Shown here in pieces: positions 6,586 through 9,855 of a stretch of DNA of 64,000 nt. Made by a program: the position numbers and the translations under genes. This DNA comes from Candidatus Hydrogenedentota bacterium. Its GTDB lineage: Bacteria > Hydrogenedentota > Hydrogenedentia > Hydrogenedentales > JAGMZX01. The stretch spans positions 29,814 to 93,813 of the forward strand of contig JAKQEQ010000159.1 of NCBI GenBank assembly GCA_029556545.1, in the 5' to 3' direction. Every line of letters starts with the position of its first letter. The stretch's first letter is position 1. Under the pieces are notes generated by a model. It was given only the letters and a program-made list of their open reading frames with translations, made no database searches and was not told where the DNA came from.

Positions 6586-9500
6586 ATGTCTTATCACAAA
6601 GTATTTCAGGCGTACTGTGTCTTCTGGACCGTTTGCTGCGCGGCATTCGTGCTTGCCGGCACGCCGACGTTCGCCAACGGCGTGTCGCACGGAGTAAACA
6701 TTACGGTAAAATCTGGTGCCGTAGGACTCCCCGCCCCGCCGGTCCCGCGCGACGTCAACGCGAACGCAGACCCCTGGAACGATATTTACAAGGCCGGCGG
6801 CACGGCCCCGGCGCCAGGTTCGACCAGCCTGCTGCGGCTGGACAAGGCGCTCCTCGGCCTGCTCCCCCACGACGACATCGACGCCATTTCCTACGCCGAC
6901 GCCAATGTGGCGCTGCCGCCGCCAGTGCTAATTGCCGACGGGCCCGCCTGGGTTGAGGGAATTCCCGGCGGCGGCTGGGAAGACTGGCAAGGCAACCTCA
7001 TCTTCTGGCACTTCTCGGTGGATGAGTTTGCGCTCGGCGTGTTCAACCCCTTTACCATTCCTCCCAAGTCCGCGGTGCGCAACGAAGTCATGGCGGGCAC
7101 CTCGTGGAACCTGCTGCCCGCGAATCCGAATGAGGCGCACGGCGACTACTTCATCGCCAGCACCGCCTTCCCCGGCGGCAAAGGCAACAATTTCCTGGGC
7201 GCGGATGAAGAACAGTTGACGCTTGATATCTCGCCGCTCGCCGCGCCCCACGCGCAGGACGACCTGAACGGTCTGGACCTGGAGGCGGACCTGATCCTGC
7301 ATCCAGACATCCCGCTACAGCCGGGAGAGTTGTTCTTCTCTCTCGCGCCGGGCTCGCCGTCCCTCGCGGGCATCGACCCCTTCTTCCTGCGGCCCTTCTC
7401 CGAGGCGGACATTCTCACCCCGAACGGCGGGGGGGGATTTCGCATCGCGCAGGTGGTGGACGGCCTGATCGTGAACGGCAACGCGGAACGGCTCGGCATC
7501 CCCTTGGGCAACAACCTGGACGCCCTCTTCGTGGACGGCAACGGCATTCCCTGCTTCTCCGTGCAAATGCTGATCCCCAGCATGATGCCGGGTACTCCGA
7601 ATGCGAATCCCGGCGACATCCTGGTGCCGGACGGCATGTTGTACCCACTCGGCATGCCGGTTCCGGACGGGGTAGCCGACGAGTTGATTCCCGCGCGCGA
7701 CCTCGGCCTGCTCGACCTCGAGAAAATTGGAACGCCGGAAGACCCACCCGACCCGCAAGACGACAACCTGAACGCCCTCGACGCCGAATTGGAGCCGTAC
7801 ACGTCGCCTCCTCCTCCCGTGGAAGGCAAGGACGATGCTCTTGTGCCTGGTGGCGAAGGCGAAGGTGAAGGTGAAGGTGAGGGCGAGGGCGAAGGCGAAG
7901 GTGAGGGCGAGGGCGAGGGTGAGGGTGAAGGTGAAGGCGAAGGTGAAGGCGAGGGTGAGGAACCGAATCCCTTCGGCATCAATATCTCCGTGCGCGTGAA
8001 CAGCGCCGGATTGCCGCCGCCGCCGTGGCCCCGGGACGTCGCGCTCAATCCGGATCCTTGGAACGACGTCTATAAGGCCGGCGCAGGCCGCAACCTCCTG
8101 CGGCTACCGCAGCATCTGTTAGGACTCCTCCCCGGCGACGATATCAATGCCATCTCCTATCGCGATACCGTCGTGTTTCTGCCGCCGCCCGCGCCCGCGG
8201 ACCCGCCTTTCTGGGCGGACTTGCCGGGCCATGGGTGGTGGGACGCCGCGGGATTGCCTATATACTGGCATTTCTCCGTGGACGCGTGGGCGATTGGCGT
8301 CGGATTCAAACCGCTCGCGATGCCGCCGCGCCCGCCGTCTGATGTCAATAACGAAGTCCTGCTTGGCAGACAATGGAATGTGGTGCTCGCGAATCCTAAC
8401 GAGGCGCATGGGGACTACTTCCTCACCAGCATTGTGTTTCCTGTTGGAATGCCAGGGGGCATTGGGTCAAACCTCCTCGTCGGCGACGAAGAAGCGCTCG
8501 GACTCGCCATTCAGAACAACGTCGCGCCCCCGCCAGCCCACGACAACGACGACCTGAATGCACTCGACTTGCACGCGCCGTTGATCGATAGCCGACCCCA
8601 TCCGCTGCCGCCCGGCTGCCTTTACTTCTCATTGGCTAAGGGATCCCCTTCGCTCGGCGGATTCGACCCCACTTTCGGGCGGCCTGTCACCGCCGCGGAC
8701 ATTTTTACGCCTGACGGCGCGGGCGGATTCCGTATCGCGCTGATGGCCGATGGACTGCTTGTAAACGGAAACGCTGAAACGTTGGGGGTTCCCCTCGATA
8801 ATGATCTCGATGCGCTGTTTGTCGACGGACAAGGCATCCCCTGCTTTTCGGTATTAAGCCCCATTGTGAGCGCCCTGCATCAAGCCGCGAATCCCGGCGA
8901 TATCCTCGTTCCCGACGGCATGCTCCTGCCGGCGGGAGGACCCGTACCAGACGGTGTCGCCGACGAAATGATCCCCGCTCGAGACCTCGGGCTCCTCGAC
9001 CTCGAGAAGCTTCCTAATCCCGAGGACCCCGACCCCGACCCGCAAGACGACAATCTGAACGCCCTGGATGCGGAACTGGCCAGTGTACCGCCGGATAACC
9101 CTCCGGGTGAGGGCCAGGACCAGGCCGGTAGCGAAGGAGAAGGAGAGGGCGAAGGAGAAGGTGAAGGTGAGGGTGAAGGCGAGGGAGAGGGCGAAGGTGA
9201 AGGAGAAGGGGAGGGAGAGGGCGAAGGAGAAGGTGAAGGGGAGGGTGAAGGCGAAGGAGAAGGTGAAGGCGAAGGGGAGGGAGAGGGCGAAGGCGAAGGA
9301 GAAGGAGAAGGCGAAGGTGAAGGGGAAGGGGAAGGAGAAGGCGAGGGCGAAGGCGAAGGGGAAGGTGAAGGGGAGGGAGAGGGCGAAGGGGAAGGAGAAG
9401 GAGAAGGCGAAGGTGAAGGTGAAGGGGAAGGGGAAGGCGAAGGCGAAGGAGAAGGCGAAGGTGAAGGGGAAGGTGAAGGCGAGGGAGAGGGCGAAGGTGA

Positions 9501-9855
9501 GGGCGAAGGCGAAGGGGAGGGCGAGGGGGACCCTTGCTTCAGCGAATACCACACGGCGGACCAGTCGCAGAATAATCTCATCGAGTTGACCGAGTTGTTG
9601 CGGGTCATTCAGTTCTATAACAGTGGCGGATTCCACTGCGCCGATGACCCCTCGAGCACGGAAGACGGCTACGTCCCCGGGCCGGGTGCGAACCACGCTT
9701 GTTGCCCCCACGACAGCGACTACGTGCCCTCCGGCCCCGATTGGGAGGTCAAACTGACGGAGTTGTTGCGCGTAATCCAGTTCTACAACTCGGGCGGCTA
9801 CTACTACTGCCCGGACGAAGCGACGGAGGACGGTTTTTGCCCAGGGCAGCCTTGA
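6586..9855 (+). CDS. Secreted modular protein: two duplicated domains, two Glu-Gly linkers, C-terminal EF-hand-like module
   Basis: Predicted exported protein of 1089 residues, function unknown. The ATG at 6586 follows AGGAGGT and opens a signal peptide of about 31 residues ending near GTPTFANG. Two homologous domains of about 390 residues follow, recognisable by shared landmarks PRDVNANADPWNDIYKAG / PRDVALNPDPWNDVYKAG, NPNEAHGDYF, and PARDLGLLDLEK with PQDDNLNALDAEL at the end of each. The first Glu-Gly linker (7855-7960) joins them. The second (9133-9528, 66 dipeptides) leads to a C-terminal module of about 108 residues with two ELLRVIQFYNSGG helices and six cysteines. The repeated Asp-rich segments suggest calcium-dependent folds, which is inference. 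No catalytic motif was recognised. Confidence 0.85.
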   Translation: MSYHKVFQAYCVFWTVCCAAFVLAGTPTFANGVSHGVNITVKSGAVGLPAPPVPRDVNANADPWNDIYKAGGTAPAPGSTSLLRLDKALLGLLPHDDIDAISYADANVALPPPVLIADGPAWVEGIPGGGWEDWQGNLIFWHFSVDEFALGVFNPFTIPPKSAVRNEVMAGTSWNLLPANPNEAHGDYFIASTAFPGGKGNNFLGADEEQLTLDISPLAAPHAQDDLNGLDLEADLILHPDIPLQPGELFFSLAPGSPSLAGIDPFFLRPFSEADILTPNGGGGFRIAQVVDGLIVNGNAERLGIPLGNNLDALFVDGNGIPCFSVQMLIPSMMPGTPNANPGDILVPDGMLYPLGMPVPDGVADELIPARDLGLLDLEKIGTPEDPPDPQDDNLNALDAELEPYTSPPPPVEGKDDALVPGGEGEGEGEGEGEGEGEGEGEGEGEGEGEGEGEGEGEEPNPFGINISVRVNSAGLPPPPWPRDVALNPDPWNDVYKAGAGRNLLRLPQHLLGLLPGDDINAISYRDTVVFLPPPAPADPPFWADLPGHGWWDAAGLPIYWHFSVDAWAIGVGFKPLAMPPRPPSDVNNEVLLGRQWNVVLANPNEAHGDYFLTSIVFPVGMPGGIGSNLLVGDEEALGLAIQNNVAPPPAHDNDDLNALDLHAPLIDSRPHPLPPGCLYFSLAKGSPSLGGFDPTFGRPVTAADIFTPDGAGGFRIALMADGLLVNGNAETLGVPLDNDLDALFVDGQGIPCFSVLSPIVSALHQAANPGDILVPDGMLLPAGGPVPDGVADEMIPARDLGLLDLEKLPNPEDPDPDPQDDNLNALDAELASVPPDNPPGEGQDQAGSEGEGEGEGEGEGEGEGEGEGEGEGEGEGEGEGEGEGEGEGEGEGEGEGEGEGEGEGEGEGEGEGEGEGEGEGEGEGEGEGEGEGEGEGEGEGEGEGEGEGEGEGEGEGEGEGEGEGEGEGEGEGEGEGEGEGDPCFSEYHTADQSQNNLIELTELLRVIQFYNSGGFHCADDPSSTEDGYVPGPGANHACCPHDSDYVPSGPDWEVKLTELLRVIQFYNSGGYYYCPDEATEDGFCPGQP
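7855..7960 (+). repeat. Glu-Gly hexanucleotide linker (first, secreted protein at 6.6 kb)
   Basis: Run of GAR-GGN codon pairs coding alternating Glu-Gly between the two duplicated domains. The third bases vary, so the DNA is a degenerate hexamer repeat. Confidence 0.95.
9133..9528 (+). repeat. Glu-Gly hexanucleotide linker, 66 dipeptides
   Basis: 396 bp of uninterrupted GAR-GGN pairs. It uses GGA and GGG often, unlike the linkers at 13.7 and 52.2 kb, which use almost only GGC and GGT. This suggests a separate expansion. Confidence 0.95.
9529..9852 (+). other. EF-hand-like / dockerin-like C-terminal module (copy 1)
   Basis: About 108 residues. The first helix-loop reads ADQSQNNLIELTELLRVIQ, matching an EF-hand loop D-x-S-x-N-x-x-I-x-x-x-E. 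The second, PDWEVKLTELLRVIQF, keeps the loop Asp and final Glu. Between them lie [10 protein letters not shown] and a CC pair, and the end reads TEDGFCPG. Homologous copies end the proteins at 10.1, 45.4 and 49.3 kb. Confidence 0.8.

What the first reader, a model, noticed from the sequence alone, without database searches (positions are those of the whole stretch)
9133..9855. A dockerin-like, two-EF-hand C-terminal module on Glu-Gly tethers in four secreted proteins
Seen: proteins starting at 6586, 10139, 45366 and 49324 end in the same module of about 100 residues, preceded by (or one domain after) a Glu-Gly linker. Its first loop in the 45366 protein is [12 protein letters not shown], a full EF-hand loop, followed by LLRIIQ; the second keeps Asp5, Ile8 and Glu12. 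Known: type I dockerins pair two calcium loops and bind cohesins. Here the loops are separated by about 35 residues with conserved TEDGY-x-PGPG and cysteines, unlike dockerins. Inference: a distinct docking or surface-sorting tag, possibly with a cohesin-like partner elsewhere in the genome.
Basis: partly seen in the sequence, partly recalled or inferred. Interest (0 to 1): 0.85.

Follow-up and report, generated by a model that had tools for sequence, protein, structure and literature searches.

The report
Dockerin-like tag on ~100 secreted proteins
Bacteria of the little-known phylum Hydrogenedentota attach the same small, apparently calcium-binding docking module, often on a long Glu-Gly tether, to as many as about 120 different secreted proteins per genome; its shape and its fusion to cohesin domains suggest a large surface-assembly system that nobody has named.

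Summary
Confirmed and extended. The four window proteins share a ~95-residue module. It is a tandem repeat: EF-hand-like loop, helix, small beta-hairpin, twice. No Pfam or NCBIfam family covers it. The host genome has 113 matches in 104 ORFs; 92 of the ORFs end at the module, 7 carry it just after the signal peptide and 5 inside, so it is portable and not a strict C-terminal sorting signal. It occurs in 41 of 68 Hydrogenedentota genomes (up to 124 copies); every named record found is from that phylum. AlphaFold2 gives a confident model (pLDDT 92) with two loop-helix units; the best Foldseek matches are all dockerins, but at non-significant E-values. Strongest clue to function: small secreted proteins consisting of one cohesin plus this module occur in 25 of the 41 module-bearing genomes, and in 8 of them lie in a conserved operon next to a dockerin-like gene and membrane-tailed cohesins. 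Genomes with mass expansion of classical dockerins (25-64) lack the module entirely. Best reading: a lineage-specific, divergent dockerin-like docking tag that assembles much of the surface proteome, probably through cohesins. Binding is untested, and one 40-copy genome lacks any clear cohesin cluster.

The parts
6586..9855 (+). Secreted protein, 1089 aa: signal peptide, two copies of a ~400-aa domain, two Glu-Gly linkers, C-terminal module
   Evidence: translation; EG runs; no convincing Pfam family for the repeated domain
9133..9528 (+). 132-residue Glu-Gly linker with mixed codons
9550..9852 (+). Module copy 1 (loop DQSQNNLIELTE; helices from 9589 and 9757)
10139..14212 (+). Secreted protein, 1357 aa, with C-terminal module
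13724..13888 (+). 55-residue Glu-Gly linker
13910..14209 (+). Module copy 2
45366..49310 (+). Secreted protein, 1314 aa: two PMP/choice-of-anchor-Q halves, Glu-Gly linker, P-domain, module
49017..49307 (+). Module copy 3, with the most canonical EF loop ([12 protein letters not shown]); basis of the AlphaFold2 model
49324..51243 (+). Secreted protein, 639 aa: GDSL/SGNH-like hydrolase domain (weak match), Glu-Gly linker, P-domain, module
50950..51240 (+). Module copy 4

Best explanation
The module is a portable, probably disulfide- and calcium-stabilised docking domain that works like a dockerin. Each half is an EF-hand-like calcium loop followed by a helix; the two near-identical helices present a roughly two-fold symmetric surface. 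It is attached, usually at the C terminus and often on a long flexible Glu-Gly tether, to proteins exported through a normal signal peptide, and it holds them on the cell surface or in a surface complex by binding a partner. The most likely partners are cohesin domains: the membrane-tailed cohesins of the conserved operon, with the cohesin-module proteins acting as adaptors that carry one cohesin and plug into another through their own module. Shown here: repeat structure, EF-loop conservation, predicted fold, copy number, secretion signals, positions, and the cohesin fusions and operon. Inferred: calcium binding, disulfides, docking, and cohesin as the partner.
For: Loop 1 conservation over 102 copies: D1 102, N/D3 98, D/N5 101, E12 101; loop 2: D1 102, D/N5 102, E12 102; four near-invariant Cys (96-101 of 102). 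Model pLDDT 92.1, pTM 0.83 with two loop-helix-hairpin units. Foldseek against the PDB: ranks 1-8 are all dockerins. 85/102 members match EF-hand_6 (best 4.9e-6) and 23/102 match Dockerin_1 (best 3.3e-5) weakly. Secreted passengers with surface-type domains: P-domain, Ig-like, LRR, PKD, beta-helix, kelch, CHRD. Portable: C-terminal, N-terminal or internal. Cohesin-module proteins in 25 genomes of five families, in 8 of them within an operon dockerin-type gene / cohesin-module / cohesin with membrane tail. Ten of 11 genomes with 18 or more copies have a tandem cohesin cluster versus 9 of 57 others (Fisher p 3e-6, not corrected for kinship). Genomes with 25-64 classical dockerins have none of these modules. 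The N-domain of one cohesin-module protein (L045) has cohesins among its best fold matches.
Against: Foldseek E-values are not significant (best 1.5, TM about 0.35). Profile-profile comparison with phylum dockerins aligns one loop only (28%; six dockerins only). G009 has about 40 modules but no cohesin-module fusion and only weak cohesin hits. G007 (19 copies) has the cluster but no fusion. In most family-f10 genomes the fusion stands alone, with a weakly scoring cohesin (14-20 bits). Overall rank correlation of module and Dockerin_1 counts is mildly positive (0.38), so only the mass expansions are exclusive. The cohesins could simply be one more passenger class, and the operon dockerins could be their only ligands.
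Confidence: 0.55

Rival explanations
1. Docking tag with a partner other than a cohesin, for example an outer-membrane protein or S-layer-like receptor unique to the phylum. The cohesin-module proteins are then ordinary cargo of the same system.
For: G009 has about 40 copies and no cohesin cluster; cohesin-TM genes also occur in genomes without the module; the fusion proteins lack a membrane tail and look like other cargo.
Against: Cohesin fusion is conserved in five families, including genomes with only 3-6 copies of the module; dockerins dominate the fold matches.
Confidence: 0.2
2. Export or sorting signal read by an outer-membrane secretion machine, analogous to a T9SS C-terminal domain or an exosortase tag.
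For: Strong C-terminal preference, 92 of 104 ORFs; wide range of passengers.
Against: Also found at the N terminus right after the signal peptide and internally; no membrane helix and basic tail; no Por_Secre_tail in this genome; no exosortase in G000, G001 or family f6.
Confidence: 0.12
3. Calcium-dependent binding to polysaccharide or another matrix component, retaining proteins without a protein receptor.
For: Surface-type passengers; conserved aromatic and His residues in the hairpins.
Against: Near-invariant polar residues on both helices (R, Q, N 100-102 of 102) are more typical of protein recognition; no fold match to carbohydrate-binding modules.
Confidence: 0.08
4. A stable calcium-bound terminal cap with no partner, spread by gene conversion of a 3' cassette.
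For: An 87%-identical 3' cassette is shared by two neighbouring unrelated passengers.
Against: Polar helix residues are invariant across a phylum; N-terminal placements and conserved cohesin fusion.
Confidence: 0.05

Closest known systems
Type I dockerin (Pfam PF00404) of cellulosomes
   Same: Tandem loop-helix repeat, EF-hand-like calcium loops, near-identical halves, appended mostly at C termini of many secreted proteins; dockerins are the best fold matches. Dockerin symmetry and dual binding are reviewed in PMC12484212.
   Different: About 95 residues against a 57-position Pfam model; a beta-hairpin with TEDG[YF]-x-PG after each helix; four conserved Cys; inserted residue(s) in loop 2; no member scanned individually reached the Pfam cut-off; passengers are not mainly carbohydrate-active enzymes.
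Adaptor scaffoldins (cohesin plus dockerin in one protein; PMC4959524)
   Same: The cohesin-module proteins have this logic: a cohesin and a docking module in one chain.
   Different: Only one cohesin, and the new module in place of a type II dockerin; no carbohydrate-binding module detected in those scanned.
Proposed 'planctosome' of freshwater Planctomycetes (PMC6461901)
   Same: Non-cellulosomal cohesin-dockerin system in a diderm, with P-domains, thrombospondin type 3 repeats and a dockerin-cohesin adaptor; P-domain is a common passenger here.
   Different: Uses classical dockerins and few proteins; here about 100 proteins carry a divergent module. Both are computational proposals.
C-terminal sorting signals (T9SS CTD; PEP-CTERM with exosortase)
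   Same: Mass C-terminal tag on secreted proteins.
   Different: Folded EF-hand-like domain, also used at N terminus and inside, no membrane tail, no matching machinery in this genome.

Membership tests
Dockerin type I (PF00404) | Score above Pfam curated cut-off (22.9 bits) | tested here: not met
   None of the four window proteins matches. Of 10 members scanned singly the best is 19.1 bits over one loop. 23/102 match at E up to 10, best 3.3e-5, bits not printed, so a rare copy may reach the cut-off.
Dockerin type I (PF00404) | Two tandem calcium loop + helix repeats | tested here: met
   Repeat in alignment, model, internal identity 68%.
Dockerin type I (PF00404) | Both loops canonical 12-residue EF-type | tested here: not met
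   Loop 1 yes; loop 2 has one or more inserted residues but keeps D1, D/N5 and E12.
Dockerin type I (PF00404) | Significant fold similarity to solved dockerins | tested here: inconclusive
   Best eight matches are dockerins but E 1.5-3.7, TMq about 0.35.
Dockerin type I (PF00404) | Calcium-dependent binding of a cohesin | not testable with these tools
   Only genetic association available.
EF-hand superfamily | D-x-[DN]-x-[DN]-x-x-[IV]-x-x-x-E loop followed by helix | tested here: met
   Loop 1 in nearly all 102 copies; 85/102 match EF-hand_6, best 4.9e-6; helix after each loop.
Cellulosome | Scaffoldin with several cohesins and carbohydrate-active cargo | tested here: not met
   Cohesin proteins of this genome that were read carry single cohesins; commonest passenger families are not CAZymes. 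Tri-cohesin proteins were seen only in module-free relatives.
T9SS C-terminal domain | Por_Secre_tail in the genome | tested here: not met
   No match in G000.
PEP-CTERM / exosortase | Membrane tail on cargo and an exosortase gene | tested here: not met
   Module ends without TM helix; no exosortase in G000, G001, f6.

The most novel reading that the evidence does not exclude
A new class of cohesin-binding docking module, in effect a new dockerin type, that organises a large fraction of the secreted proteome in several lineages of a bacterial phylum on membrane-anchored single cohesins, and that took the place of classical dockerins in the lineages where it expanded.
Probability: 0.4. Interest if true: 0.8.

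Novelty: new variant of a known kind. Interest (0 to 1): 0.62.

Why it matters
If true, cohesin-type assembly is not mainly a cellulose-degradation device but a general way for diderm bacteria to build a cell surface from about a hundred interchangeable proteins. It would give a functional handle on the surface of the largely uncultured Hydrogenedentota, offer a new orthogonal pair for designer assemblies, and explain why these genomes are full of Glu-Gly-tethered proteins that annotation leaves blank.

Tried and rejected
C-terminal sorting signal of T9SS or exosortase type: rejected as main reading because of N-terminal and internal copies and missing machinery. Known C-terminal sorting tails on the anchored cohesins: NCBIfam finds none, although some end in CxC-TM-Arg tails. 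Simple anticorrelation with classical dockerins: not true overall (Spearman +0.38 in 40 genomes); only the mass expansions exclude each other. Plasmids and phages: no match. Literature: no paper in the held library links Hydrogenedentota to dockerins, and the few hits for Hydrogenedentes with dockerin or cohesin mention the terms only a few times each; InterPro/UniProt annotation could not be checked. Viral fold library: nothing significant. Second AlphaFold2 run on a natural cohesin-module protein (L045) was low-confidence overall (pTM 0.43), as expected from a one-sequence cohesin half; it neither supports nor refutes binding. The review by Peer et al. (PMC3035643) is not held.

Full report
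WHAT IS THERE. The four proteins starting at 6586, 10139, 45366 and 49324 exist and end in one homologous module of about 95 residues. The given coordinates 9133-9855 are the 132-residue Glu-Gly linker plus the module of the first protein. None of the four modules matches any Pfam or NCBIfam family above cut-off.

HOW COMMON. A profile of the four finds 113 matches in 104 ORFs of the same 6.1-Mb genome. In 92 of these ORFs the module ends within 33 residues of the last codon. Of the other 12, seven have it directly behind the signal peptide and five inside, often next to Glu-Gly runs. Of 92 C-terminal cases, 74 have a Glu-Gly run upstream and in 65 it lies within 30 residues of the module. A signal-peptide-like start is seen in 58 of 69 testable ORFs, against 58 of 173 other long ORFs in the same stretches (a crude hydrophobicity rule).

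WHO HAS IT. In 84,980 species genomes, the relatives shown (best 78 loci of 273 confirmed) are Hydrogenedentota or unnamed MAGs; several of the unnamed ones have contig lengths equal to those of relatives inside the window's order. The scan used two strict peptide patterns, so distant homologues in other phyla would be missed. Across 68 genomes of the window's phylum, 41 have it: from 1-6 copies in family f10 to 19-25 in f6, 79-113 in f1 and 40-124 in f9. Family f4 has almost none. No phage or plasmid match. That G000 is Hydrogenedentota is inferred from contig-length identity of order-mates with named records (for example G021:C210 and JAKQOG010000114).

ANATOMY. Over 102 copies each half reads D-x-[ND]-x-[DN]-x-x-[IV]-x-L-S-E-L-L-R-x-I-Q-F-[FY]-N-S-x-G-[YF]-H-x ... 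T-E-D-G-[YF]-x-P-G. Loop 1 is a canonical 12-residue EF-hand loop. Loop 2 keeps the first Asp, fifth-position Asp/Asn and final Glu in all copies but has inserted residue(s). The halves are 68% identical over 26 positions. Four Cys are near-invariant. AlphaFold2 on the 102-row alignment gives pLDDT 92.1 and pTM 0.83: helix 18-29, hairpin 33-35/46-48, helix 72-83, hairpin 87-89/97-99. Foldseek finds nothing significant, but the eight best PDB matches, and most of the other sensible ones, are dockerins. By sequence the similarity to dockerins and EF-hands is confined to one loop.

PASSENGERS. In this genome the tagged proteins carry InlB-type repeats, P-domains, beta-helices, leucine-rich repeats, Ig-like, PKD, CHRD, kelch and PASTA domains. 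This is a surface proteome rather than a cellulase set. The 45366 and 49324 proteins share an 87%-identical 1.0-kb 3' cassette (P-domain, linker, module) below different N-terminal parts, direct evidence of tag-cassette shuffling.

THE COHESIN LINK. Cohesin (PF00963) is found in 33 of 40 relatives, and in this genome. On contig C33 (locus L131) a cluster holds a classical dockerin gene (9820-10359, minus strand), a weak dockerin gene with thrombospondin type 3 repeats (10523-12061), then SP-cohesin-MODULE (12095-12859), then two SP-cohesin genes with a C-terminal membrane helix and basic tail (12856-13911 and 13918-14619). The order dockerin-type gene / cohesin-module / membrane-tailed cohesin recurs in 8 genomes of three families. 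Full-length cohesin-module proteins occur in 25 genomes of five families; in f10 genomes with only 3-6 modules one is such a fusion and another is a conserved ~850-residue protein with a GNSGSP motif. Tandem cohesin clusters are present in 10 of 11 genomes with 18 or more modules and 9 of 57 others (kinship not corrected). A natural cohesin-module protein modelled by AlphaFold2 has an all-beta first domain whose best fold matches include the archaeal non-cellulosomal cohesin 2xdh (probability 1.00) and the cohesin-like 2jh2 (0.99); E-values are about 0.02.

MUTUAL EXCLUSION OF EXPANSIONS. Three f4 genomes carry 64, 47 and 25 Dockerin_1 matches and no module, and encode tri-cohesin proteins; genomes with 79-124 modules have 2-8 Dockerin_1 matches. 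Over all 40 genomes the counts are weakly positively correlated, so the claim concerns only mass expansion.

INTERPRETATION. The evidence fits a dockerin-like docking tag better than a cleaved sorting signal, because the tag is a folded two-fold symmetric EF-hand-like domain that is also used at the N terminus. Cohesin is the best candidate partner, by fold resemblance, operon context and fusion, and the cohesin-module proteins look like minimal adaptor scaffoldins (compare PMC4959524; the planctosome proposal PMC6461901 is the nearest published idea found). Calcium binding, disulfides and cohesin binding are inferred. The main counter-evidence is G009, with about 40 modules and no clear cohesin cluster, and the lack of significant fold E-values.

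VERDICT. Observation confirmed; interpretation partly supported; a new, unnamed, phylum-specific variant of the dockerin kind in the sense of how it works, not a member of Pfam Dockerin_1.

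Noticed in passing
9133-9252: The Glu-Gly linker uses mixed synonymous codons (GAA/GAG, GGA/GGC/GGT/GGG), which suggests the repeat is kept at protein level and is not just DNA slippage; many contigs of this MAG end inside or near such linkers.
   Followed up: partly
48300-49300 and 50236-51233: 87%-identical 1.0-kb 3' cassette (P-domain, linker, module) joined to two unrelated N-terminal proteins in adjacent genes.
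   Followed up: yes
G000 contig C167:6339-6482 (outside window) and C9:93846-94178: Many genomes of the phylum seem to have one ~1050-1350-residue classical dockerin protein and one ~390-430-residue membrane-tailed cohesin, perhaps an ancestral pair.
   Followed up: no
L224, L228, L230: Tri-cohesin proteins of ~980-1037 residues in three f4 genomes that have 25-64 classical dockerins: a possible scaffoldin-like system in the same phylum.
   Followed up: no
L131:13912-14616, L212:6127-6783, L221:1869-2729, L223:7105-7809: The last cohesin of the operon ends in a Cys-rich stretch, a membrane helix and (mostly) a basic tail, reminiscent of MYXO-CTERM-like tails but matching no NCBIfam model.
   Followed up: partly
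L131:5930-9715: A 1261-residue protein beside the cohesin operon with more than 20 EF-hand loops in Glu-Gly-separated blocks and a C-terminal module.
   Followed up: no
47600-48110: The second half of the 45366 protein contains an extra ~170-residue PKD-like stretch inside a choice-of-anchor-Q unit, which looks like an insertion.
   Followed up: no
L247, L248, L249: Divergent single copies of the module in families f3/f4 sit inside proteins ending in a membrane helix and basic tail; possibly the ancestral or receptor-side form.
   Followed up: no
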